64,000 nt of DNA from Alphaproteobacteria bacterium. GTDB lineage: Bacteria > Pseudomonadota > Alphaproteobacteria > UBA9219 > RFNS01. Positions 1 through 22,450 of the stretch are shown piece after piece. The stretch covers positions 82,004-146,003 of the forward strand of contig WGMR01000008.1 of assembly GCA_016124955.1 (NCBI GenBank). The letters are read 5' to 3'. Position 1 is the stretch's first letter, and each line of letters begins with the position of its first letter. The position numbers and the translations under genes were made by a program. The notes under the pieces were generated by a model. That model did not search any database and had not been told where the DNA came from. It was given only the letters and a program-made list of their open reading frames with translations.

Positions 1-1
1 G

Positions 2-100
2 GAAGCCGCACCCTCAAGTGTGTCGCAGGCGACGCCTGCCGTCATTGCCCCCATAAGCAAGCCGGCACAAAGCACCCCGGTGGAAGAGGGGGCAAAATGA
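2..100 (+). CDS. C-terminal end of an upstream gene (partial)
   Basis: An open frame enters from the window edge and ends at a TGA (98-100) that overlaps the next start codon as ATGA. The visible 32 residues are rich in Ala, Pro, Ser and Val, like a disordered tail. The 4-base overlap suggests translational coupling with the pilus ATPase, so this is probably the preceding gene of the same operon. Its identity cannot be read from this fragment. Confidence 0.5.
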   Translation, partial: EAAPSSVSQATPAVIAPISKPAQSTPVEEGAK

Positions 101-1845
101 ACGAAACCACGCGTCCTCCCGAAGAAGCCGAAGGCAACACCGATGAACAGGTCACGCCGCGGCATTATGAACTTGCGGTGGCCGAACAGGCCGTGCACCG
201 CATGCGCGGCCGTTATCTTTCGATCGACGATATCCTCCGCCGCAACGGATTCAAGTCGGACGTTCGCCCGACACAGATAGAAGGCAAGGCGACGCGCGAA
301 AACCTCACCGCGCAGGCGCTGCGTCTTTATGTTCCGGCGGCGCAGCAAGCGGCGATGGGGGTTGTGCTGCTTGAATTGCGCGATGGCGTGCTGCGCATCG
401 CCGTGGGCGACAGGATCGACGATGCCGATGTGGCCCGCATCACCAATGCGCTGAAGCGCGCCAACCGCGCGGTCGAGAAGGTGGATGTCGAGCCGTGGGA
501 CCGCGCCGAACTTTCGCGCCTGATGCGCGAACAATCGGAAATGGCGGGCGAACGCCTGCTGCGTCTGTTCGCCGCGCTGACGCGCGATCCGGATAACGCG
601 GTTTCGGTCGAACAATCGGTCAACGATATTCTTGCCGAAGCGTTGCAAAGCCGCACGTCGGATATCCATCTTACGTTGCAGGAAGACGATACGCGCTGCT
701 GGATCCGGTACCGGGTTGACGGCGATATCATCTATAAGCATCTGATCCCGTCGCATGTGATGGCGCCGATCGTCACGCGTATCAAAACCGATTCTAAAAT
801 GGACGCCGCCGACCGCCAGCATCCGCAGGACGGACGTCTCGGTTTCGAATGGCAGGGCCGTATGATCGACGTTCGTGTCGCGTGCTTGCCTGTCGCGCCA
901 GGCGGCGAAAAGCTCACGCTCCGTTTGCTCGATCGTGAAAACCTGCGTTCGTTCGACGAACTCTTCATGCACGCGCCGATGGTGGCCGATCGTTTGCGCC
1001 GCACGGTGCACGGCCATACCAAGGACGGCGGCTTGATTATCGTGTCCGGTCCTACGGGTTCTGGTAAATCGACAACGCTATACGGCATCATTCAGGAAAT
1101 CGACCGCGCCGCCCGCGCCGTCTATTCGGTCGAAGCGCCGGTCGAATACGATATGCCGCTGGTCGATCAAACTTCGGTGACCGATAATTCCGCCAACGAC
1201 ATCGCCTCGATCATCCGCGCGCTGATGCGGCACGATCCGGACGTTATCATCGTCGGCGAAATGCGCGATAGCGATACGGTGGAAGCCGCGCTGCGCGCCA
1301 CGGAATCGGGCCATTTGGTTATCACGACGGTGCACGCGGTTGACGCGCTGCACACGCTTGATCGCGTTGACGGCTTTCTCAGCTCCGCCTACCGCACCAG
1401 CGGTCTTTACATCCTCGGTCACGCGCTGGTGGGCTCGCTCTCGCAGCGCCTCGTCAAAACCGTATGCCCCGCCTGCCATAAAACCGTGAACGCAATAGAG
1501 GCCATGGGCGATGAAGAGCGTTGCCGCGAACTTGAAATTCCGCCCGATGCGCGCGTGGCGCTGGCCAGCAAGGAAGGCTGCGATTTGTGCAACCATCGCG
1601 GGTTCCTCGGCCGGACGCTGGCGCTCGAAGCGCTGTTCCCGCCCGAAGATCAGGCAAGCCGCCGCGCCATTACGGAAATGATGGTGTCGAATGTCACCAA
1701 CTCCATCGCCGAAATCCCGGGCACGATCTATATTCCGCGCCGCGATTCAATCCGCGATCTGATCACGCGCCGCGCGATCGACGCCCATATGGGCGCCGCG
1801 CTGCTGGTCGAAGAAGCCGCGACGCGGCAGGCGCGCGGCCATTAA
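97..1845 (+). CDS. Type IV pilus / IncI PilQ-like assembly ATPase (GspE/PilB family)
   Basis: A 582-residue secretion-type ATPase that would power pilin assembly at the cytoplasmic face of the inner membrane. A Walker A motif (GPTGSGKST) lies near residues 318-326. It is followed by an Asp box, the Walker B region (DVIIVGEMRD) and the His box (TTVHA), in the GspE/PilB order. Two CxxC pairs (C457/C460 and C495/C498) form the tetracysteine zinc site found in many GspE/PilB proteins. The start is supported by GGAAGAGGG at 82-90. The next gene encodes a GspF-like membrane partner, and the following genes resemble the IncI1 thin-pilus set, so PilQ-type is preferred over a general type II secretion GspE. 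The family is certain; the specific system is inferred. Confidence 0.88.
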   Translation: MNETTRPPEEAEGNTDEQVTPRHYELAVAEQAVHRMRGRYLSIDDILRRNGFKSDVRPTQIEGKATRENLTAQALRLYVPAAQQAAMGVVLLELRDGVLRIAVGDRIDDADVARITNALKRANRAVEKVDVEPWDRAELSRLMREQSEMAGERLLRLFAALTRDPDNAVSVEQSVNDILAEALQSRTSDIHLTLQEDDTRCWIRYRVDGDIIYKHLIPSHVMAPIVTRIKTDSKMDAADRQHPQDGRLGFEWQGRMIDVRVACLPVAPGGEKLTLRLLDRENLRSFDELFMHAPMVADRLRRTVHGHTKDGGLIIVSGPTGSGKSTTLYGIIQEIDRAARAVYSVEAPVEYDMPLVDQTSVTDNSANDIASIIRALMRHDPDVIIVGEMRDSDTVEAALRATESGHLVITTVHAVDALHTLDRVDGFLSSAYRTSGLYILGHALVGSLSQRLVKTVCPACHKTVNAIEAMGDEERCRELEIPPDARVALASKEGCDLCNHRGFLGRTLALEALFPPEDQASRRAITEMMVSNVTNSIAEIPGTIYIPRRDSIRDLITRRAIDAHMGAALLVEEAATRQARGH

Positions 1846-1874
1846 AGGATGACAAGCGGAACGAGGCATAGCGC

Positions 1875-3104
1875 ATGAAACTGTTCCATGCCAAATACGC
1901 CCAGCCGCTGCCCGGCGGCAGCGTCGCGGTGCATGAGGAGGATTTTTACCTTCCCGATGCGACCACGGTGCGCCGCCAGCTGCGGCAACGCGGTTTGTGG
2001 CCCATTCATATCAACGAACAAAAGCCCGCGCTGTTCGAATGGTTCGATGTACGCTCGCGCGATTGGCAATTGCAGCTTCTGCGCGCGCTGCGCTTCCAGA
2101 CCGCCACGGCGTCCGCCGGTACTGCGCTGCTAAACATTATCGAAGCCGAAGCCGACCCCCGCCGCCGTATCGCCTTTTTGCCCACGCGCACGGTGCTGAA
2201 GGGCGGCGGTTCGTTCGCCGAAGCCTTGCGCGAACTTAAGCTGATGGATGCGGCCACGATGGCGATCATCATGGCGGGCGAGCGTGCCGGCGATCTTAAG
2301 GGCGTGATCGCGCATGCGATCAAGCATGTCGAGGAAAAAGGCGGCCAGTTCAAGGCGGTCATGGCGGCCATGGGCTGGCTGGCATTCGATATCTTCTCGA
2401 TCATCTCTTCGCTGTGGGGCGCGCAATTCGGCTTTATTCCTTATCTGAAGGATAACGCCCCCAAAAACGCCACGCCCGAACAGCTCGCAAAGTTCGAAAG
2501 CGCAATTGTCACCGTCACGTGGGTCAACGGCTCACTGATCTTTATCACGTCGGCGATCATCGCCTTCATCGTCATATTCGGCGGCAGCTATTGGAAAAAC
2601 CGCCATCGCCCCAACCATTGGTCGGCGCAGATGGTGATCAGGATGCCGATGTTCGGCCAGTATCTCGCCCACGCCGCGCTGCACGATACCTGCAAACTGA
2701 TCGCACGCCTGCTGCGCGGTAAGGTGCCGCTGGATGACGCGCTCAAGATCATCATCGAAACTACGATCGAGCCGTCGGCGCGGGCATATTGGACCGAATG
2801 CCGCCAGCGCATCATGGCGGGTGTCGAGCCGGCCAAGGCGCTGGGCCGTTGGCCGCTGACACGCGCCGAACGCAACCAGATCGCCACCGTGCAATCGGTC
2901 GATCAGCTGGTCGAAGTATATGAAGCTTTGGCGGCCGAACGTTCGCTGATGGCCAAGACCATGCAGCGTAAAATCGTCCTGACCGGCGTTATTACCATGA
3001 TGGCGCTATCGGGTGTTATTGTGCTTACCATGGTCTGGCTGCTCATGATCCAGAATCAAGGGTTTATGGACAGCCTCACTGGCCTGCGCGAAGGGGGCGC
3101 ATAG
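1875..3104 (+). CDS. PilR/GspF-like pilus assembly inner-membrane protein
   Basis: A 409-residue protein with the layout of GspF/PilC/PilR platform proteins. It has a soluble helical domain (SFAEALREL...MAIIMAGERAGDLKGVI), a membrane segment near residues 165-190, a second near 215-240, a repeated helical domain (CKLIARLLRGKVPLDDAL) and a last membrane segment near 365-390. Such proteins form the inner-membrane platform on which the ATPase acts. It starts 29 bases after the ATPase and is followed directly by a PilO2-like gene, as in an operon. Family assignment is firm; the PilR label rests on context. Confidence 0.8.
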   Translation: MKLFHAKYAQPLPGGSVAVHEEDFYLPDATTVRRQLRQRGLWPIHINEQKPALFEWFDVRSRDWQLQLLRALRFQTATASAGTALLNIIEAEADPRRRIAFLPTRTVLKGGGSFAEALRELKLMDAATMAIIMAGERAGDLKGVIAHAIKHVEEKGGQFKAVMAAMGWLAFDIFSIISSLWGAQFGFIPYLKDNAPKNATPEQLAKFESAIVTVTWVNGSLIFITSAIIAFIVIFGGSYWKNRHRPNHWSAQMVIRMPMFGQYLAHAALHDTCKLIARLLRGKVPLDDALKIIIETTIEPSARAYWTECRQRIMAGVEPAKALGRWPLTRAERNQIATVQSVDQLVEVYEALAAERSLMAKTMQRKIVLTGVITMMALSGVIVLTMVWLLMIQNQGFMDSLTGLREGGA

Positions 3105-3105
3105 G

Positions 3106-4161
3106 ATGCTCCAGAATTTCATCAAATCCTTCTCCGGCACAGGGAAGATCGCCGAAGGCGATCCCGGCGCGCAGGATGATCGCGGTGGAACCCACGGCGA
3201 CGGCATGAGCGGCGTGGTGCAGGATATCGCGGGCGGCGCGTTTGGCGGCATCGCGGTCGCGGCCGAATATTACTTTCCGCCCGAACTGATCGGCGGCGTC
3301 GCGCCGCGCGTTGCCGGGCAGGAGCGCGAAATCGCGTGGAACGCGGCGGCCGAAGCTTGCGACAGCGAACGCATCCACCTTATATGGAGCACGACCGAAG
3401 ATCGCGTCTGGTATGTGGCGTCTCGTGCATCCGATCTTGCGGCGCATCCGCACACCTGGTGCCCATTCGCCTCGCTGCTGCCGGGCATGAAGGCATCCGA
3501 GCCGCCGCCGATTTGCTATACATATTATTCCGACGAAGCCGCAACCATGATGACGGTGACGAAGGATTTAATTCAGATCCACCGCGGCACGTCTTCCGTT
3601 ATTCGCGCCAAGGTCGAACGTGTGGCGCGCGAACTTGGCGGCGCCAAGATCGTCGATTTGTCGCCGGACAAGATCGCAAGCCTCGCGCCGCAGGCGTGGC
3701 ATTCGGTTTCGCTGTTCGAAGACAGGGTGCGGCGCATGATGACGGCCGCTATCGTCATGACCGGCGTGGTTATTGTCACCATATCGTTCCTTGTCTGGAT
3801 GGTCGCTTCCATGGCGCTCTTGGCCGCCAAGGCCGAGGTTTCGTCGGCGCAGGAACGCTCGGCCCAAAAATCGCAGGATCTGTTAACGCTCGTGACGCGC
3901 ATGCGCACCAGCGAGCTGCGCGAACAGCTCGCGCGCTTCTCCGATCTCAACGATGGTTTGGTGGAGGTCGGCGGCTGGCTGAAAATCTATGATCTCAAGA
4001 CCGGCAACAAGGTCATGTGGAAGGCGATCGTGCCATCGAGCCTTACGGGCGACCGTATCCGCGAACTGGGCGGCAAGACCATTGAAACCAACGAGCAGGG
4101 CGTGCTCATCGGCAACGATGCCGCCGTGGCCGCCATGAAGGAAAAGAGGGGCAGGCGATGA
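3106..4161 (+). CDS. PilO2-like pilin accessory protein
   Basis: A 351-residue protein with a soluble N-terminal half of about 205 residues. One membrane segment follows near residues 210-235 (AIVMTGVVIVTISFLVWMVA), and the C-terminal part begins with a helical, coiled-coil-like stretch. Bitopic proteins with a mid-chain membrane segment are typical of PilO2 accessory proteins of IncI-type pili, which differ from the short PilO of ordinary type IVa pili. It starts one base after the preceding stop and overlaps the next gene by four bases. The assignment rests on architecture and context, since no catalytic motif is expected. Confidence 0.5.
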   Translation: MLQNFIKSFSGTGKIAEGDPGAQDDRGGTHGDGMSGVVQDIAGGAFGGIAVAAEYYFPPELIGGVAPRVAGQEREIAWNAAAEACDSERIHLIWSTTEDRVWYVASRASDLAAHPHTWCPFASLLPGMKASEPPPICYTYYSDEAATMMTVTKDLIQIHRGTSSVIRAKVERVARELGGAKIVDLSPDKIASLAPQAWHSVSLFEDRVRRMMTAAIVMTGVVIVTISFLVWMVASMALLAAKAEVSSAQERSAQKSQDLLTLVTRMRTSELREQLARFSDLNDGLVEVGGWLKIYDLKTGNKVMWKAIVPSSLTGDRIRELGGKTIETNEQGVLIGNDAAVAAMKEKRGRR

Positions 4162-4733
4162 AGCTCAGCGATTTTCTGGCCAAGAAGCCGGATAAAGCCC
4201 CGGCAACCAAGAAGGACAAGGGCGGCAATGCGAAGAAGGGGCCGTCCATCCTTGAAGGGCTTAGCGCCGATATGGTGCAGCGCGCACTCATGTCGCTCGA
4301 TCGTGCGGCGCTTGTGATCGTCGGCAGCACGTGGGGTGCGGCCATGGTGATGGTGGCTATTGCTCTTTATACCGTATCGCTCGCGAAAGACGCCTCGGCC
4401 GATCTGGATATGGCGCTTGCGGCGGAACCGAGCCTGCCCCGGCTTGAACAAACCAGCATGGAGTTCGAGGACACCAACAAAATCGTGGAGCGCCTCAAGA
4501 AGCGCTACGAAGGTATCGTCTATGAAACGGGCAAGAACGGCGAGCTGCTCATCAAGGCGACCAACGCAGACAGCTTCAGCACATGGATGGCCAGCCTCAG
4601 CTATCTCGATACCGTTGCGCCCGATGTCCGATGGTCGCTTGCGGCTATGTGCATCGGCGCCGAATGTCAGGAGAATCACCTGATGGCCGCAACCATTCTT
4701 GGCCGGCGTATCAGCTACAAGCCGGCCGAATAG
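4158..4733 (+). CDS. Small membrane-anchored pilus-cluster protein (PilP position)
   Basis: A 191-residue protein whose first 45 residues are rich in Lys. One membrane segment lies near residues 52-75 (ALVIVGSTWGAAMVMVAIAL), and the periplasmic part of about 115 residues contains two cysteines near the end (MCIGAECQEN). The gene overlaps the PilO2-like gene as ATGA, so the two are probably translated together. In the IncI1 pil operon the gene after pilO is pilP, which is the basis for the label. The sequence itself does not prove homology, and it could be another alignment-complex protein. Confidence 0.4.
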   Translation: MKLSDFLAKKPDKAPATKKDKGGNAKKGPSILEGLSADMVQRALMSLDRAALVIVGSTWGAAMVMVAIALYTVSLAKDASADLDMALAAEPSLPRLEQTSMEFEDTNKIVERLKKRYEGIVYETGKNGELLIKATNADSFSTWMASLSYLDTVAPDVRWSLAAMCIGAECQENHLMAATILGRRISYKPAE

Positions 4734-5025
4734 TTCGCCGGGCCGCCACAGGCCTTCGATTCGCAATCAAAACAATTATGGATATGGTTGGGCAAATGAT
4801 GCGTGGCCACATCAAGGGGCTAAATAGTCACAACAAAAGGCCTAGAAGGCTGCAATGCCCGTGACCAGTTGACAGAAAAGACAAAATGAATCAACTTCTT
4901 AATGGGAGTCTGGGGCCAAAAGTCAGTGGAAATCTATTCCGCTTTGCGTTGGCACCTAAATGTCATACAAGTTTTGCAAGCAATCCGCAGGGCGCATGCC
5001 CGCCACAAGTTTCAGGGAGACTGAT
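4734..5025 (+). other. Intergenic region before the prepilin-like gene
   Basis: About 290 bases without a convincing gene. It contains a good -35-like TTGACA at 4869-4874, but no strong -10 at 16-18 bases downstream. AGGGAG at 5014-5019 is the ribosome binding site of the prepilin-like gene. The region is less GC-rich than its neighbours and may hold a separate promoter for the pilin. Confidence 0.4.
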
Positions 5026-5670
5026 ATGAAAACAAGCGTGGCGCCGAAAATGGCTCGCTTTCATAGTGAAGCTGGTATCGCCATTGGCCCCATTCTCTTC
5101 GTGGTCGCTATTCTTGGGATTCTCGCCGCCGCCATCGCCGCCGGCAGCGGTTCTTTCACCACAAGCACTTCAGGCGAAGCATCGCGCACCAAGGCTTCCG
5201 CGCTTATCGAAATCGGCCAGAACCTGAAAATCGGTATGGACCGCATCACAGGCCTTGGCACCGATGTCGCGAGTGTGGTGATCGATCCTGCGCAAACCGG
5301 CAACAGCGACGATCTGTTCTCGCCCACCGGAGGCGGTATTAACCCGCCCTCGACCACTATGGCGAACGATCCGCCGAACGATGCTTGGTTCTATGTCGAT
5401 GGCGCCGTGCCGCAACTCGGCACCTCGGGCACCGAAAAGCTTGCGATGATCGAAGTTGCCAGCGCGGTTTGCGATCAAATCAATCTTAAGGCCGTCGGCC
5501 TCAGCGCCACGCCTTCGGGGGCCGATATCGGCAACGTGATCTCGAACACGCTTGGCACCGATGTCAGCAACTGGCCCACCGCGCTTAAGGGCAAGCCGAC
5601 CGCCTGCGTTTATAACACCGATGCGGCTTCCGGCGGTTACTGGTTCTACCAGGTGCTGAACCTCCAATAA
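5026..5670 (+). CDS. Type IV prepilin-like protein without the canonical Glu5
   Basis: The start at 5026 is preferred over an upstream in-frame ATG at 4960, because AGGGAG lies 6 bases before it. The 214-residue product has a short basic leader ending in SEAG, followed at once by a hydrophobic helix (IAIGPILFVVAILGILAA). This is the arrangement of a prepilin cleaved after Gly by a PilD/PilU-type peptidase. The usual Glu at mature position 5 is absent (Pro there). The remainder is a Gly/Ser/Thr-rich head domain with two cysteines (AVCDQ and TACVY), which could form the C-terminal disulfide loop of pilins. It follows the assembly genes, consistent with a major pilin (PilS position). It could also be a pseudopilin. 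Confidence 0.6.
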   Translation: MKTSVAPKMARFHSEAGIAIGPILFVVAILGILAAAIAAGSGSFTTSTSGEASRTKASALIEIGQNLKIGMDRITGLGTDVASVVIDPAQTGNSDDLFSPTGGGINPPSTTMANDPPNDAWFYVDGAVPQLGTSGTEKLAMIEVASAVCDQINLKAVGLSATPSGADIGNVISNTLGTDVSNWPTALKGKPTACVYNTDAASGGYWFYQVLNLQ

Positions 5671-13458: not shown

Positions 13459-14694
13459 ATGGCGGTACAAGTCACCACGCTGCCGAACGGCCTGCGCGTC
13501 GCCAGCGATACGATGGCGGAAAGCGAAAGCGTTGCGCTCGGTATCTGGGCCGGGGTTGGCACGCGCAACGAGCCGGAAAACGCCAACGGCATCGCGCATG
13601 TCGTCGAACATATGCTATTCAAGGGTACCGAACGGCGCGATGCCTTTCGCATATCGGCCGAAATGGAAGATGTGGGCGGCTATCTCAACGCCTACACGAC
13701 GCGCGAAGAAACCGCCTACCATTGCCGCGTTCTGCCCGAAGATGCGGGGCTCGGTTGCGATATTCTTTCCGACATGGTGAAAGCCGCCACTTTTCCGCCC
13801 GACGAATTGGCACGCGAACGCGAAGTGATCGTGCAGGAGATCGGCCAAACGTTCGATACGCCGGACGATTACATCTTCGATATTCTGCAGGCTTCGGCCT
13901 ATCCCGGCCATAATCTCGGCCGCCCCATATTGGGCACCGCCGAAACCGTGCGTGATGTTTCACGTGAAACGCTTATGAAATACGTGAAAGATCATTATGT
14001 TGCCGGCAATATGATGCTTATTGCCGCCGGAAAAATCGGCCATGCGGCGCTTGTGGCCTTGGCCGAAGAACATCTCGGCAGCCTGCCGCGCGGCAAAGCG
14101 CCCAGGCTTGCCCCTGCCGCCTATCGCGCGGGGCAGGTGAAGGAAACGCGCAAGCTGGAGCAATTGCACCTGACCATGGCTTTTCCCGGCGCCGGTTTCC
14201 ATGACCCGGATTACCATGCGGTCAAAACGCTGATGGCCGTTCTGGGCGGGGGGATGTCATCGAGGCTGTTTCAGGAAGTGCGCGAAAAGCGCGGACTTGC
14301 CTATACCATCAGTGCCTTCAATCAGGCATGGGCCGATACCGGCATGGTGACGGTTTATGCGGGCACCGACCCCGCGCGGGAAGCCGAGCTGACGGATGTG
14401 CTGCGGGACGAGCTTGGCAAGGCCGCAAAGACAGGGGCAGGCGGCATCACGCCCGAAGAGCTGGCCCGCGCCAAGGCGCAGATGCGCGCGGGCATCCTGA
14501 TGAGCCAGGAAAGCAGCCAGACGCGCTGCGACCAGCTGGCGCACCAGATGCTGACCTACGGCCAGCCCGTGCCGCTGAGCGAACGTTTGGCGAAGATAGA
14601 GAGCGTAAGCGTGGATGATGTGCGCGCCGCCGCCGCGCGCTTCACGCAGGCGGAAAAACAAACGATGGTGACGCTGGGGCCGGTTGGGGGTTAG
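13459..14694 (+). CDS. M16-family zinc peptidase (mitochondrial processing peptidase-like)
   Basis: A 411-residue insulinase-family protease. The inverted zinc motif HxxEH is present as HVVEHMLF near residue 50, with a downstream Glu in the REREVIVQEI helix. The second domain has the usual GGGMSSRLFQEVREKRGLAY. Proteins of this type are close to the beta subunit of the mitochondrial processing peptidase; in bacteria the substrates are mostly unknown. The gene begins one base after thrC. Its stop codon overlaps the stop of the convergent gene on the other strand. Confidence 0.93.
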   Translation: MAVQVTTLPNGLRVASDTMAESESVALGIWAGVGTRNEPENANGIAHVVEHMLFKGTERRDAFRISAEMEDVGGYLNAYTTREETAYHCRVLPEDAGLGCDILSDMVKAATFPPDELAREREVIVQEIGQTFDTPDDYIFDILQASAYPGHNLGRPILGTAETVRDVSRETLMKYVKDHYVAGNMMLIAAGKIGHAALVALAEEHLGSLPRGKAPRLAPAAYRAGQVKETRKLEQLHLTMAFPGAGFHDPDYHAVKTLMAVLGGGMSSRLFQEVREKRGLAYTISAFNQAWADTGMVTVYAGTDPAREAELTDVLRDELGKAAKTGAGGITPEELARAKAQMRAGILMSQESSQTRCDQLAHQMLTYGQPVPLSERLAKIESVSVDDVRAAAARFTQAEKQTMVTLGPVGG

Positions 14695-16367
14695 CCGGTT
14701 GGGGCAGGTTGTGCTTGTGGTACAACGCGCAGGCCTTTCGGTTTTTCAACCCGCTCACCAAGACCGAGTTTGCCGCCCCACGTAGCACCGCCGATAAAGG
14801 GTATGTTGTATAACGCATTTAACATAAACCCATACATGGTTCTTTTGTAAACAGTCTCGCCATTGCTTCGTCCGGTTGTCCAGCGCGAGGCCATACCGAA
14901 CAAAGAAGTTTTAGCGGTCATTTCGTCTTTGGCCTTCTGCTCGTTCGCAAAACGCTCGCGGAACTTATTTTCCATATCCTGATCTAGGCCGATGAAATGG
15001 TATTTATCGCCACCGCGCTTCATGCATTCAGAATACAGGGCATACTTGGTGGCTTCGTTCATTCCCTCCGTGAACTTGACTACGCCGCCAAAATCTTTGT
15101 CGGCACGGTCGATCAGCATTTTGACAACTTCATCCGGAGGAACCCCGTTGCTTGAATGGCTTTGAATGGTCATGCCATTCGGGCCATCGGTAATCGTCAT
15201 GTCCCGCCCAGAACTATCGCGCATCTCTATGGTAACTGTGTCGCCATTGCGCGTAACATTCGTAATAGGTGTGTTTGGTTGTTTCCATTTATTCGCCCAC
15301 TCGTCAGCTATCTGGCTAGCTGTTCGATGAGTTTCACCGTTCTTCTTAAACCATTCTTCGCCCTTGAGGTTCCTCAGCTCCTGTTCCGATGGCGCTGAAA
15401 CCCCGGCGGCAATTTGTTCGCCATTGCTTTGCTCATTCGCGGCTTTCCATGCACCATTTATGAAGTTCTTTAAATGTGACCCGCCAAAACGCAGAATTGC
15501 ATAGCCGAGCGCAACCCCAAGTGCTGTGCCTATAACCCCTGCCAATATGGCCGCACCCATACCGGTGCCGAGAGCACCAACTAAAGCGAAGTAGGCGACC
15601 GCGCCAGCACCAAGCGGAACAGCGGCGGCACAAATACCAACGCCGGCAATTTTCATCAGGGCTATCAGACGCGTTTTGTTGGGATCTTGCGGTTCTGATT
15701 CAAGCGCCAGTTTATTGGCAAGGTCGCGGCGCTTTTGGCGGTCCAGCTTCTGGTTCTTCATATTCCTGATAGTCTTCTCACGGTCCTTGCGGGACATGAA
15801 AAGGTGACGATGAAGAAATCTTAGTGTTCTCGGTCCAAAGTGTAAAATCAATGCACCGCCGATCAACCAAGGTGCCGCGGTCAGTAGAAGTGAGAAGGCG
15901 GTTCCCAAAACCCCTGTTGCGGTGCCAAGGAGACCGCCTGTGCCGCCGGCAGCGCCCAAAGTGCCTAATGACGGCATTGTTAGGCCGAGACCTGAGAAAA
16001 TAGCACCAAACTTGGCGGCTATACCTGCCCTAAGCGCAATCCCATAGGGAGAAAGCATAAGGATGGATAACCCAATGCCAAGGCCCAACCGGCCCCCTGT
16101 TTTTCCGAAGATACTGCCGCCAAGCATTTTATCGACGGCATTGCCAAGGGTGCGTCCTACCCATCGAGTGGTCAGTGCCAATGCACCCGCCTGCCCCAAC
16201 ATGGCAATCAGACTGCCGGCTGGGAAGAAGAGCAGAAGTGCAATGGGAATGAGCGGCACAATATACGGTCGCTTAGCTGTCGCGCCAATAGCAAGCCGGA
16301 CCGGCACCATAATGATGCCGCCTACTAGGCCAATGCCTCTTCGGAAAAGTCTCAATATAGCTTTCAT
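14691..16367 (-). CDS. Hypothetical multi-spanning membrane protein downstream of the DotA homologue
   Basis: A 558-residue protein that I do not recognise. The first 190 residues contain several hydrophobic, Gly/Ala-rich segments. A basic loop follows (FMSRKDREKTIRNMKNQKLDRQKRRD), then a second Gly/Ala-rich hydrophobic block near residues 240-300. The C-terminal 250 residues are soluble and mixed in charge. Base composition looks less GC-rich than the cta genes. It is 147 bases downstream of the DotA/TraY homologue on the same strand, so it may belong to the same secretion or transfer machinery, but nothing in the sequence names a function. No clear ribosome binding site precedes the start. 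Confidence 0.75.
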   Translation of the reverse strand: MKAILRLFRRGIGLVGGIIMVPVRLAIGATAKRPYIVPLIPIALLLFFPAGSLIAMLGQAGALALTTRWVGRTLGNAVDKMLGGSIFGKTGGRLGLGIGLSILMLSPYGIALRAGIAAKFGAIFSGLGLTMPSLGTLGAAGGTGGLLGTATGVLGTAFSLLLTAAPWLIGGALILHFGPRTLRFLHRHLFMSRKDREKTIRNMKNQKLDRQKRRDLANKLALESEPQDPNKTRLIALMKIAGVGICAAAVPLGAGAVAYFALVGALGTGMGAAILAGVIGTALGVALGYAILRFGGSHLKNFINGAWKAANEQSNGEQIAAGVSAPSEQELRNLKGEEWFKKNGETHRTASQIADEWANKWKQPNTPITNVTRNGDTVTIEMRDSSGRDMTITDGPNGMTIQSHSSNGVPPDEVVKMLIDRADKDFGGVVKFTEGMNEATKYALYSECMKRGGDKYHFIGLDQDMENKFRERFANEQKAKDEMTAKTSLFGMASRWTTGRSNGETVYKRTMYGFMLNALYNIPFIGGATWGGKLGLGERVEKPKGLRVVPQAQPAPTG

Positions 16368-16514
16368 CTATTCATCACGTAAAAAAGTTGGTTAATTTTG
16401 CCTGCGCATGCAACTACACGAAATATCACAAATGAATTTACCACAAAGTGGTGAAAATAATGGACCGATACAATAAATCAAGCTGTATCAAATACATAGA
16501 ACCTTTCTTGTAAT

Positions 16515-19361
16515 TTAGGTTTTTGTGGATTCGGTATTTGGATCACCGTCTCCCTTGGCAATGGCGTCGCGCGTTCTTGGGCCACGATCTTCGCCTTCCC
16601 TGAGGCTGCCTGCGCTCCGACCGCCTCCGCTATCGCCACCACCACCACCAGCCGCTGCCGCCCCGCCACCGCCAATAGCGGGTGTGCCTTTAGCAAGACC
16701 CACAAGTGCGAGTGCGCCAGCACCGCTGACCACTTTCTCCATAACACCGGGGTCGCCGGTTCTCTGTGTGACTGCGGATTTGCTGACCCAAAGCAGAGCC
16801 TGCGAGGGGAAGAAGTCGATACACTTGAATGCACTGTTGGCTGCTGTGTAGGCCAAGGTCATATAAATCACGGTGAACATAATTTTTGAAAGCGTTGTTG
16901 ACCCAATTGCGCCTGAACCCGTTCCCGTAGTTGCACCCAAAAACAGGCTGTTGAGCAGGGAAATGGATACGCCAAAGATAAGAAGGCCTGCCACAAGGCC
17001 GAATACCATCAGCACTGGGCGCAAAAACACATTGAGAATAAGAAAGTACGAATGTTCGGCATACTTGCCAGGCAGGCCTTCGCCTTCGGGGCTAAGATGT
17101 GCGATGGCCATAATGGGGATCATAAGCACAGCTTCAAACACGCCTATGATCCATGTAATGACAAGAAAGAAAAACTTTATAAATGGCAGCAGTGGCAACA
17201 TAAAGGCAATAAAAATACCCGGGGTCATGCCAATGAGACCGGCCCATATCAGCAACATGCCGCCACCGTTCGGGCAATAAGGAATAAGGTTACACATTAT
17301 GCCAAGGCCAGCGATGCCCATATTGGCATGGATCCACTTTTGGCCAAGCGCAATCAGCTCCATAAAGGGATTTGTGTTTCCTTGTTCGATGCTGAGGCCC
17401 AGGTTGCCGTTTCCATCCCATACGCCGGCATAGGAGAAAGCCTTTTCCGCTATCCAAAGTATCGTATCAAATGCCCAGAAGCCGGTGGCAATGCCCTTGC
17501 TGGTGACATAGCCACCAAAGTCACCAACCATATCACCCATTTCGTTGAGGATGCCGTCAACGACCTGACTGCCGTGTTCATTCAAATAATCAATAGAGCC
17601 TGTTACAAAATCAGAAACACCTTGTCCTGCATTAGCCAATATTTCCCCGGCCGTCCTTGTTGGGCCAAGGGTGGAGGCGGCCGTCAGCCATTGCTGTACA
17701 TCCCCGTTTATCGTGGTTACTTGTCTGAATATGGCGTCGCGGCTATCAGCGCGGCTGTCTGCCGCATCATCGCCTGTAAGTCTTTCCCACCAGTGGGCAA
17801 AGCCACGAGCGCTGCTTTCCACCCACCCATCGCTTGGCGTGTACATAAGAGATGCCTTGATTGCCTTTGGTAAGGCCTGGCTGCTGACATCGAGGATGGT
17901 GTTTTGTGTTACCGATAGGTCGTAAAGGAAACGCCCTGCGCCTGCCCAGCCTTTGGCACTGGCTTCATCGAGCAGAGTGCTCATGATATCGGCCTGCTGA
18001 GCCTGAAAGGCTTGTGTCGTGGCCTGATTAACCTTTTGCTGGTACGAAACAACCAGATCCATAAATTCATTCTCACCATCTTGCCCATTGCCCGGAACCT
18101 CACCTCGCTCATCGGCCGGGATATCAGGATGGTATGCCTTGACTATTTTCTCGGCCAGCGTGCCAAAATCCCCTTGAAGTCCGAGAGACTCCGTGAAGGT
18201 CGAGCGGCTGCTGTCAATGAATGCGCGGACGGCATTCCCGCCTGCGTTCTCACTGCCCGCACCAGCGGGCGTCGCAGGCAATTCATAGCCGCCGCACATC
18301 TGGAACCCGCGCGCCTGACGGTTCCCGAACATCATACCATTGCCGTTTAAGGTTGGTTGTTCGGTGATTGCGGAAGTTTCAAAGAACGATGCGTCAAGTC
18401 CGCCACCCGCCGCGCCTGCTTCCAGCGCTACGTCATATGCGTGCCAACAGGCATAGTTTTCAACCATACCGCGCACTAGCGCGCCGTAGCCTCTGATCTG
18501 GTCGGGGCCTCTTATCTGAAATTGCATCGAGCGCAAGCCTTCGATGGCTATATTCCATACCTGGCTGCCGAGCCCCGCACCCCAGCTGGCGACCTGGAGT
18601 ACGATTAATTGGCCGGAACTGAGTGTGCCGCCAAGCGGGACCAACATGCCGACGGCTATGACAAGACGAACGGGCGCCCATATTTGGCTGGCGCGTTTGC
18701 CCATGACGACGCCATGATGCGCCGTTTCCGCGACCATGGATACGAGGATGTAGAGCAGGATAAAGGCAGCAAAAACCAGCATAGCGCTGGAATAAAAGCC
18801 GAACATGCTGCGCACCGCCGTTTGCAGGGCGGGGTTGGCGGGGAATGCGCTGCTGCCTTGTGCAAAGAACAGATAATCGATCATCTGTTTGCTGATATCG
18901 TCGGATGCGAATTCGAAGAAGCCGCCACCACCATCGCCCTCGGCGGCGTGCGCCGTGCCTGTCAGCATGCCAAGCAGCATAAAGATAAGGGTCAGCGTGG
19001 CGAATACGAGAAAGCCGGTGATCGAGAAAAACAGGAATATTTGCGGAACATTATCCTTGCTCCAGCGCAGGCTTTGCCATGCGGTGCCGATAACTTCGGA
19101 GAGGCTCAGGCGTGCATCGATCGCAAGGCCGGGATGATTACGTGGAAACAACCCGTGCTGAGAGAACACAAGCGCGAGCATATGCGTGAACATGTTGCCC
19201 GCGCCCTTGAGCGGGGTTACGCTTTTCCCAAATTCGGGGTTGAAAAGAAAATTCAACGTCTGCTTCACGCCCGGCTTCTTGTGGGCGTGCTCATGGCCGG
19301 AATCGTTCGTGGCGGCGTTTTGCCGATTTTCGTCGTCGCGCTGCCAGCCTTGAGATCCCAT
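16515..19361 (-). CDS. DotA/TraY-family inner-membrane protein
   Basis: A 948-residue polytopic membrane protein. It has a cytoplasmic N-terminus, a first helix near residues 100-130 (FLFFSITGFLVFATLTLIFML) followed by an Ala-rich stretch, and a large extracytoplasmic domain. Several helices cluster in the C-terminal third (LLIWAGLIGMTPGIFIAFMLPLL and onward). A CIDFFPSQALLWVSKSA stretch near the last helix resembles the conserved end of DotA and IncI TraY, and a Gly/Ala-rich tail follows. DotA/TraY proteins are inner-membrane parts of type IVB secretion and IncI conjugation. The start at 19361 is preferred because AAGGTG precedes it; the frame is open to 19409. No other Dot/Icm gene is visible nearby apart from the unknown gene downstream. 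Confidence 0.75.
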   Translation of the reverse strand: MGSQGWQRDDENRQNAATNDSGHEHAHKKPGVKQTLNFLFNPEFGKSVTPLKGAGNMFTHMLALVFSQHGLFPRNHPGLAIDARLSLSEVIGTAWQSLRWSKDNVPQIFLFFSITGFLVFATLTLIFMLLGMLTGTAHAAEGDGGGGFFEFASDDISKQMIDYLFFAQGSSAFPANPALQTAVRSMFGFYSSAMLVFAAFILLYILVSMVAETAHHGVVMGKRASQIWAPVRLVIAVGMLVPLGGTLSSGQLIVLQVASWGAGLGSQVWNIAIEGLRSMQFQIRGPDQIRGYGALVRGMVENYACWHAYDVALEAGAAGGGLDASFFETSAITEQPTLNGNGMMFGNRQARGFQMCGGYELPATPAGAGSENAGGNAVRAFIDSSRSTFTESLGLQGDFGTLAEKIVKAYHPDIPADERGEVPGNGQDGENEFMDLVVSYQQKVNQATTQAFQAQQADIMSTLLDEASAKGWAGAGRFLYDLSVTQNTILDVSSQALPKAIKASLMYTPSDGWVESSARGFAHWWERLTGDDAADSRADSRDAIFRQVTTINGDVQQWLTAASTLGPTRTAGEILANAGQGVSDFVTGSIDYLNEHGSQVVDGILNEMGDMVGDFGGYVTSKGIATGFWAFDTILWIAEKAFSYAGVWDGNGNLGLSIEQGNTNPFMELIALGQKWIHANMGIAGLGIMCNLIPYCPNGGGMLLIWAGLIGMTPGIFIAFMLPLLPFIKFFFLVITWIIGVFEAVLMIPIMAIAHLSPEGEGLPGKYAEHSYFLILNVFLRPVLMVFGLVAGLLIFGVSISLLNSLFLGATTGTGSGAIGSTTLSKIMFTVIYMTLAYTAANSAFKCIDFFPSQALLWVSKSAVTQRTGDPGVMEKVVSGAGALALVGLAKGTPAIGGGGAAAAGGGGGDSGGGRSAGSLREGEDRGPRTRDAIAKGDGDPNTESTKT

Positions 19362-19600
19362 CACCCGCACCTTAGTTATCGTCATCCGAAAACCAAAAAC
19401 CGCATGCATATCAGGTGCCTGAGCGCCCTGTGGGCCAGCCCGGAACCATTGAACGCCTGCGAATCCTTCTTCTACCTATATATCCATTGGAACAGAGGGC
19501 GGTTAACAAGCGTTTAATAGTGCTTTAGGAGTATTTTAAGAAAGTTTTAAGCATTGGCGGGCGTTAGCGCGATGCGGCTTCCGGTGTGCGGGAAAAATAC

Positions 19601-21883: not shown

Positions 21884-22450
21884 ATGAGCCTGTTAAATAA
21901 GGACTTTTTCCACAAAGAAAAAGCGGCCTTCCAGCACTTGGAAAGCATTTTGTGGCCTAATGGCCCCGTCTGCCCGCACTGCGGCCAGCACGAGCGTATC
22001 TACGTCCTAGAGGGTGTTAAGGACAAGAAGGGCCGGGTACGTCCGGGCCTCAAGAAGTGCGGTCATTGCCGCAAGCAATTCACTGTGCGCGTAAATACCG
22101 TGTTCGAGAGTGCTCATATTCCGCTGCATAAAATGTTGCAAGCGGTTTTCTTGCTTACGTCCAGCAAGAAGGGCTTTAGCGCCCATCAACTGCACCGTGT
22201 TTTGGAAATCACTTACAAGAGCGCGTGGTTTTTAGCGCATCGTATCCGCTTAGCCAGAGATTTGGTTTGGGATAGCGGCATCGAGGCCAAAGACTCTTTG
22301 CACGTTGCCTCGGCTTTAGAAGCCGGATTGGTGCGCTTTCACACTTTCGATGTCGGACTGCTGAATAAAAGCGGTAAGATCGGCAACCCTCCACTTATCA
22401 TTGAAAAGCCGAGCGTGGCGCAGCCCAAGCTTCGCCTTGTCACAAAATGA
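21884..22450 (+). CDS. Truncated IS1595 transposase joined to a PIN-domain-like tail
   Basis: A 188-residue product. Residues 1-125 match the N-terminal part of IS1595 transposases. They include a zinc ribbon with two CxxC pairs (CPHCGQ and CGHCRK) and the stretch SAHQLHRVLEITYKSAWFLAHRIR. An intact family member would continue into a DDE nuclease domain of about 150 residues, which is missing. The tail instead reads GIEAKDSLHVASALEAGLVRF-HTFD, which resembles the C-terminal half of PIN-domain toxins (an Asp followed by an Ala-rich helix, then a TFD-like turn). The join suggests a deletion or fusion that left the frame open. Transposition activity is not expected. The PIN assignment is a judgement by eye. 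Confidence 0.75.
   Translation: MSLLNKDFFHKEKAAFQHLESILWPNGPVCPHCGQHERIYVLEGVKDKKGRVRPGLKKCGHCRKQFTVRVNTVFESAHIPLHKMLQAVFLLTSSKKGFSAHQLHRVLEITYKSAWFLAHRIRLARDLVWDSGIEAKDSLHVASALEAGLVRFHTFDVGLLNKSGKIGNPPLIIEKPSVAQPKLRLVTK

What the first reader, a model, noticed from the sequence alone, without database searches (positions are those of the whole stretch)
1..5670. Chromosomal IncI-like thin-pilus block in a window that also encodes a DotA/TraY homologue
The order ATPase, GspF-like, PilO2-like, small anchored protein and prepilin recalls the pil operon of IncI1 plasmids. A DotA/TraY homologue lies about 11 kb away. IncI plasmids combine exactly these two systems, and Dot/Icm is the relative of the IncI transfer system. 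No conjugation or plasmid maintenance genes appear between them; instead core metabolic genes do. This may be an ancient, domesticated system, for example for attachment or effector delivery.
Basis: partly seen in the sequence, partly recalled or inferred. Interest (0 to 1): 0.6.

Follow-up and report, generated by a model that had tools for sequence, protein, structure and literature searches.

The report
Second pilus beside a Dot/IncI gene
This uncultured bacterium carries, built into its chromosome, a full protein- or DNA-injection machine of the Legionella/IncI-plasmid kind together with its own thin pilus, but the pilus genes in this window belong to a second, little-known kind of pilus and lie near one injection gene mostly by accident.

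Summary
The genes are real. Window 97-5670 holds five genes of a seven-gene type IV pilus operon (secretin and an ASH/PilP-like gene lie just upstream), conserved across an uncultured alphaproteobacterial order. DotA/TraY at 16515-19409 is certain. A genuine R64/IncI1-type thin-pilus operon (PilL, N, O2, P, Q, R, several PilS) lies on another contig, directly behind dotDCB and about 25 kb from DotH. Together with DotI (two copies), G, H, F-like, N, O, M and L this makes a near-complete chromosomal Dot/IncI (MPF_I) system. No MOBP relaxase is found in this 99%-complete genome. The window's pilus fails every R64 profile, groups with obscure betaproteobacterial plasmid pili by ATPase phylogeny, keeps only the PilO2/PilM-like fold, and has pilins that lack Glu5 (Pro5 throughout the order). 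The 11-kb closeness to DotA is probably accidental: DotA has foreign-looking GC3, and pil-DotA adjacency is not inherited. Still, in 385 sampled alphaproteobacteria all eight strong carriers of this pilus also carry DotH, and some have it as their only pilus. New variant of a known kind; interest moderate.

The parts
1..100 (+). 3' end of ASH/PilP-like gene (439 aa; rest lies upstream of the window, L005:16781-18100); overlaps the ATPase start by 4 bases
   Evidence: PF15780 ASH 33.5 bits; PilP-like C-terminus judged by eye only; conserved in the operons of the order inspected
97..1845 (+). assembly ATPase (PilQ/GspE-like, 582 aa) of the window-type pilus
   Evidence: PF00437 276 bits; own clade with Methylibium and Rhodoferax plasmid loci, apart from R64 PilQ
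1875..3104 (+). inner-membrane platform protein (PilR/GspF-like)
   Evidence: PF00482 55.3 bits
3106..4161 (+). PilO2/PilM/GspL-like bitopic protein: cytoplasmic domain, TM about 211-240, periplasmic domain
   Evidence: no PF06864 hit; AlphaFold model pLDDT 78.9; Foldseek top: PilM 5eox E=4.4e-3, PilO2Bp 4byz/4bz0 prob 0.99/0.95
4158..4733 (+). small bitopic protein (191 aa), PilN/GspM-like by topology only
   Evidence: sequence; conserved neighbour in 22 aligned sequences; function inferred
4960..5670 (+). prepilin with N-terminus G|IAIGPILFVVAILGILAA: Pro at +5 in place of Glu5
   Evidence: Gly(-1) and Pro5 invariant in the aligned copies; no PilS or N_methyl Pfam hit
14691..16367 (-). orphan membrane protein (558 aa) downstream of dotA, low GC3 (0.53)
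   Evidence: no Pfam hit; no homologue found next to any other DotA examined; GC3
16515..19409 (-). DotA/TraY homologue (964 aa), low GC3 (0.59)
   Evidence: TIGR04346 264.4 bits, cut-off 100; long single branch in tree; GC3

Best explanation
The window block is the larger part of a seven-gene operon for a second, non-R64 type IV pilus, inherited across this alphaproteobacterial order: secretin, ASH/PilP-like partner, ATPase, platform, PilO2-fold protein, small bitopic protein, and one or two pilins without Glu5. The nearby DotA is the VirB6-like inner-membrane channel subunit of a chromosomal Dot/IncI-type T4SS. The other genes of that T4SS, and its true R64-type thin pilus, sit together on contig C7. 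Most likely the ATPase and platform extend the pilus through its secretin, and it acts in attachment or close contact. The T4SS, which lacks a MOBP relaxase in this genome, then delivers protein or other cargo to a contacted cell. Shown: gene identities, operon conservation, the dot-pil cluster, co-occurrence. Inferred: pilus assembly and retraction, contact function, delivery rather than conjugation. The DotA-pil nearness itself is probably a rearrangement or insertion.
For: Operon conserved across the order. C7 T4SS: DotI x2, DotH, DotG/TrbI, TraQ-like, DotM, DotL, DotN above cut-off, DotO-sized gene in the DotO position (no strong profile hit; weak VirB4), DotC and DotD, DotB 412 bits. R64-type operon behind dotB: TcpQ/PilL, PilN 267.7 bits, PAP_PilO 86.4 bits, PilP above cut-off, PilQ, PilR, PilS-family pilins. 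DotH and R64-type PilN share a contig, 10-32 kb apart, in 9 genomes including two outside the order; syntenic loci in G013, G027 and G249. ATPase tree separates the two pili. DotA and its neighbour have GC3 0.59/0.53 against 0.68-0.80 for all other genes measured. No PF03432 relaxase in G000.
Against: Only one relaxase family was searched, so a MOBH, MOBF or MOBQ relaxase is not excluded. DotA adjoins the window-type pilS in two other genera (G031, G025), about 0.15 expected by chance in a rough calculation, so the link may be more than accident. No expression, effector or phenotype data. The PilO2 fold match is modest (E above 0.001).
Confidence: 0.7

Rival explanations
1. The window block is the working thin pilus of the T4SS: a diverged IncI pil operon, with DotA beside it as a remnant of one ancestral cluster.
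For: DotA adjoins pilS in G031 and G025 and lies 11 kb away in G000. All 8 strong carriers of the window-type pilus in 385 alphaproteobacteria carry DotH; G132, G167, G267 and G348 have it without an R64-type PilN. PilO2-like fold.
Against: The three pil-near DotAs are not a clade. DotA sits in or near the dot cluster in G027 and G013. The R64-type pil is the one linked to dot genes. Related window-type operons occur without DotH in G051, G150 and G253.
Confidence: 0.2
2. The C7 dot-pil cluster is a recently inserted conjugative element (ICE) and not a resident system.
For: IncI-type T4SSs are usually conjugative; 16 of 33 genomes of the order have some PF03432 relaxase.
Against: G000 has no PF03432 relaxase. 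Cluster GC3 equals that of core genes. No tRNA in the stretches read. DotH in 29/33 genomes of the order, with the same gene order in different genera and in another family.
Confidence: 0.1
3. The window block is an ordinary type IVa or type II secretion locus.
For: Best named profiles for the ATPase are GspE (263.6 bits) and for the secretin MshL (99.8 bits).
Against: All are far below equivalog cut-offs (630 and 250). Other T4P/T2SS ATPases of the genome sit elsewhere (C6:71777, C7:14576). Pilins lack Glu5, and PilO2-fold plus ASH/PilP-like genes do not fit gsp or pilMNOPQ order.
Confidence: 0.1

Closest known systems
pil loci on Methylibium petroleiphilum RPME01 (L074) and Rhodoferax ferrireducens plasmid (L075)
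   Same: Same gene order: secretin, PilP-like, ATPase (about 33% over 94%), GspF-like, PilO2-position protein, small bitopic protein, pilins; pilins also lack Glu5
   Different: On plasmids; short PilP-like protein without the ASH region; different pilin N-termini; uncharacterised as far as found here
R64/IncI1 thin pilus (Tfpb R64 variant)
   Same: Secretin, PilP-like, ATPase, GspF-like, pilin set; PilO2-like fold
   Different: Profiles not met, order differs (PilO2-like after PilR), no PilL/PilT/PilU/PilV seen, pilin lacks Glu5. The genome's C7 operon is the true member
Dot/Icm of Legionella and IncI tra systems (T4BSS, MPF_I)
   Same: DotA, B, C, D, G, H, I, L, M, N, and probably F and O
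   Different: Chromosomal, joined to an R64-type pilus operon as in R64, no MOBP relaxase, dotA outside the cluster
MSHA pilus
   Same: Secretin best matches MshL (99.8 bits)
   Different: Below cut-off 250; different gene order

Membership tests
R64/IncI1 thin pilus (window block) | PilO2 of Pfam PF06864 | tested here: not met
   no hit at E<=1; hhalign to own true PilO probability 1.4%; fold alone resembles PilO2Bp
R64/IncI1 thin pilus (window block) | PilN secretin (TIGR02520) | tested here: not met
   47.5 bits against cut-off 287.65; MshL scores higher
R64/IncI1 thin pilus (window block) | PilS pilin (PF08805) with Glu5 | tested here: not met
   no PF08805 hit; Pro5 invariant; Glu5 in TP114 PilS per PMC9045228
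R64/IncI1 thin pilus (window block) | ATPase groups with R64 PilQ | tested here: not met
   tree; R64-type clade 100/100 excludes it
R64/IncI1 thin pilus (window block) | gene order pilL-N-O-P-Q-R-S | tested here: not met
   order N-P-Q-R-O-small-S; epimerase upstream, no PilL; R64 map
R64/IncI1 thin pilus (C7 block, L054) | PilL/TcpQ, PilN, PilO2, PilP, PilQ, PilR, PilS | tested here: met
   PF10671 54, TIGR02520 267.7 (just under cut-off), PF06864 86.4, TIGR03021 43, PF08805 37; PilQ in R64 clade
R64/IncI1 thin pilus (C7 block, L054) | PilV tip adhesin with shufflon | tested here: inconclusive
   464-aa protein with N_methyl and Peptidase_S74 could be the tip pilin; shufflon not tested
T4BSS / MPF_I | DotA/TraY | tested here: met
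   TIGR04346 264.4 bits
T4BSS / MPF_I | core complex DotC, DotD, DotH, DotG | tested here: met
   PF16932 253, PF16816 108, PF12293 250, PF03743 42, all above cut-offs
T4BSS / MPF_I | ATPases DotB, DotO and coupling DotL/DotM/DotN | tested here: met
   DotB 412 (cut-off 463), DotM PF23127 164.6, DotN NF038221 120, DotL TraG-D_C 38.4 above cut-off; DotO by size and place only
Conjugative IncI element | MOBP relaxase (PF03432) | tested here: not met
   none in G000, 99.06% complete; other relaxase families not tested
Type IVa pilus / T2SS | equivalog-level PilB or GspE and matching gene set | tested here: not met
   263.6 bits against 630 for GspE; 227 against 676 for PilB

The most novel reading that the evidence does not exclude
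The window-type operon defines an undescribed type IV filament class whose only pilins lack Glu5, and in several alphaproteobacterial lineages it has replaced the R64-type thin pilus as the contact filament of a resident, non-conjugative Dot/IncI T4SS that injects cargo into neighbouring cells.
Probability: 0.2. Interest if true: 0.75.

Novelty: new variant of a known kind. Interest (0 to 1): 0.5.

Why it matters
Dot/Icm is known mainly from intracellular gammaproteobacteria, and its IncI relatives from plasmids. A chromosomal Dot system still joined to its IncI-type thin pilus, held across an alphaproteobacterial order and without a MOBP relaxase in at least one nearly complete genome, may be an intermediate between the two and a place to study how conjugation machines become resident ones. 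The second pilus offers a natural test of whether Glu5, thought necessary for efficient assembly of major pilins, can be dispensed with across a whole pilus family.

Tried and rejected
Inherited pil-DotA linkage: rejected by the DotA tree and by scattered positions. Window block as R64 pil: rejected by profiles, order and tree. Block as IncI-plasmid import: the PilO2-like protein has one weak plasmid relative among 72,556 records. The pilin model gave no meaningful PDB match. Sequence searches of the PDB with the PilO2-like and pilin profiles found nothing useful. The orphan gene 14691-16367 could not be tied to DotA. A simple one-to-one dependence of this pilus on the T4SS was rejected, since distant members occur without DotH. 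Papers on Dot/IncI systems in uncultured alphaproteobacteria: none found; the Micavibrio ARL-13 paper reports no type IV secretion system.

Full report
WHAT WAS CHECKED. The five ORFs of the finding are at the stated coordinates. Pfam confirms the ATPase (T2SSE 276 bits) and the GspF-like protein (55 bits); the next three have no Pfam family. DotA/TraY at 16515-19409(-) is certain (TIGR04346 264 bits, cut-off 100). The window is G000:C8:82004-146003, a 1.93-Mb genome in 11 contigs, 99.06% complete. The region looks chromosomal: cytochrome oxidase genes follow the pilus block, and the second half of the window carries what reads as a cell-wall/division gene cluster (by sequence).

THE WINDOW OPERON. 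The block begins before the window with a secretin (L005:14892-16784, PF00263 60 bits) and a 439-aa protein with an ASH Ig-like domain and, by eye, a PilP-like C-terminus. Of the 33 genomes of the order, 28 contain the PilO2-like protein, and in the loci inspected the same seven genes stand in the same order, with one or two pilin copies. The named genome records are MAGs called Alphaproteobacteria, Rhodospirillales or Micavibrio sp.. AlphaFold of the PilO2-like protein finds PilM (5eox) and the PilO2Bp cytoplasmic domain (4byz, 4bz0; prob 0.99, 0.95) as its best PDB matches. PilO2Bp is the R64-variant protein with an actin-like fold shared with BfpC (PMC3984277).

UNUSUAL PILINS. The prepilin N-terminus is G|IAIGPILFVVAILGILAA, in register with canonical prepilins, but position 5 is Pro and not Glu, without exception in the aligned copies. 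Pilins of related operons in family f138 and on the Methylibium and Rhodoferax plasmids, although different in sequence, also lack Glu5. Glu5 is described as required for efficient assembly of major pilins, with its absence typical of GspK-like tip pilins (PMC5207764). The cleavage site is inferred, not measured.

THE REAL IncI-LIKE SYSTEM. Contig C7 carries DotI twice, DotH, DotG, a weak DotF match, a TraQ-like protein, DotN, a DotO-sized protein, DotM and DotL, then about 8 kb further on DotD, DotC and DotB. Directly behind dotB stands a genuine R64-type operon: TcpQ/PilL, PilN, PAP_PilO, PilP, PilQ, PilR and several PilS/bundlin-type pilins, followed by a 464-aa pilin-like protein with a Peptidase_S74 C-terminus that may be the tip adhesin. 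R64 itself has its pil genes close to traHIJ, the dotDCB homologues. Relatives G013 and G027, and G249 of another family, show the same cluster. DotH and R64-type PilN share a contig at 10-32 kb in nine genomes.

TWO PILI, TWO CLADES. In an ATPase tree, own C7 PilQ joins R64, Bosea and Methylovorus PilQ (100/100), while the window ATPase joins those of the order, G132, f138 and the two betaproteobacterial plasmids (82/95).

CO-OCCURRENCE. In 385 sampled alphaproteobacteria, 16 have DotH. All 8 with a strong window-type PilO2 match are among them; R64-type PilN (E<=1e-30) is in 11 of the 16 and in 31 others. Fifteen of the 16 have at least one of the two pili; G132, G167, G267 and G348 have only the window type. 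Hypergeometric p is 1e-12 by genome and 6e-7 by family, but the genomes are not independent, the profile comes from this order, and distant window-type operons occur without DotH (G051, G150, G253). So the tie is suggestive only.

IS DotA LINKED TO THE PILUS? DotA stands beside pilS in G031 and G025 and 11 kb away here. The three DotAs are not a clade, the other DotAs examined lie elsewhere, and in no genome compared are window-type pil and DotH close. DotA and its downstream gene have GC3 of 0.59 and 0.53, against 0.68-0.80 for pil, cox and C7 dot genes. I read the DotA locus as a relocated or foreign copy. A rough chance estimate for two such adjacencies is about 1%, so a weak reason for the nearness is not excluded.

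MECHANISM. Shown: components, operons, synteny, composition. Inferred: the window pilus assembles by ATPase, platform and secretin as type IV pili do; PilT/PilU-like ATPases next to it in G011 hint at retraction. The T4SS probably delivers cargo on contact. G000 lacks a PF03432 relaxase, which speaks against classical IncI conjugation but does not exclude other relaxases. In IncI1 plasmids the thin pilus is needed for mating in liquid, and the IncM plasmid pCTX-M3 does without one (PMC6112013), so a pilus is a helper, not a core part.

VERDICT. New variant of a known kind.

Noticed in passing
L054:17166-18560 (G000:C7 about 249966-251360): Pilin-like 464-aa protein with N-methylation motif and a Peptidase_S74 (endosialidase chaperone) C-terminus, as in phage tail spikes; possible PilV-like tip adhesin
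   Followed up: partly
L005:16781-18100 and homologues: Pilus assembly protein with an ASH/HYDIN-type Ig domain joined to a PilP-like C-terminus; the betaproteobacterial plasmid versions look shorter, without it
   Followed up: partly
window 14691-19409: DotA and the orphan 558-aa gene below it have GC3 0.59/0.53, far from the other genes measured; likely acquired or moved
   Followed up: partly
L073, L125, L126, L146, L148, L150: DotA is duplicated, often in tandem, in several relatives (two or three copies)
   Followed up: no
L063:5150-7256 (G011:C7): PilT/PilU-like pair directly downstream of the window-type pilS; orthologues lie on C6 in G000
   Followed up: partly
L004:17684-19264: 526-aa exported protein containing AQMIVFDPVAVGKNIVEFAQQ after its signal peptide, reminiscent of TrbJ/VirB5; could be the missing IcmX/TraW part
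   Followed up: no
window 21884-22450: 188-aa ORF with a CPHCG zinc-ribbon start resembling an IS1595-type transposase fragment, near the DotA locus
   Followed up: no
L190:16922-18300 (G249): Three tandem copies of the small d126 gene in the dot cluster of another family
   Followed up: no
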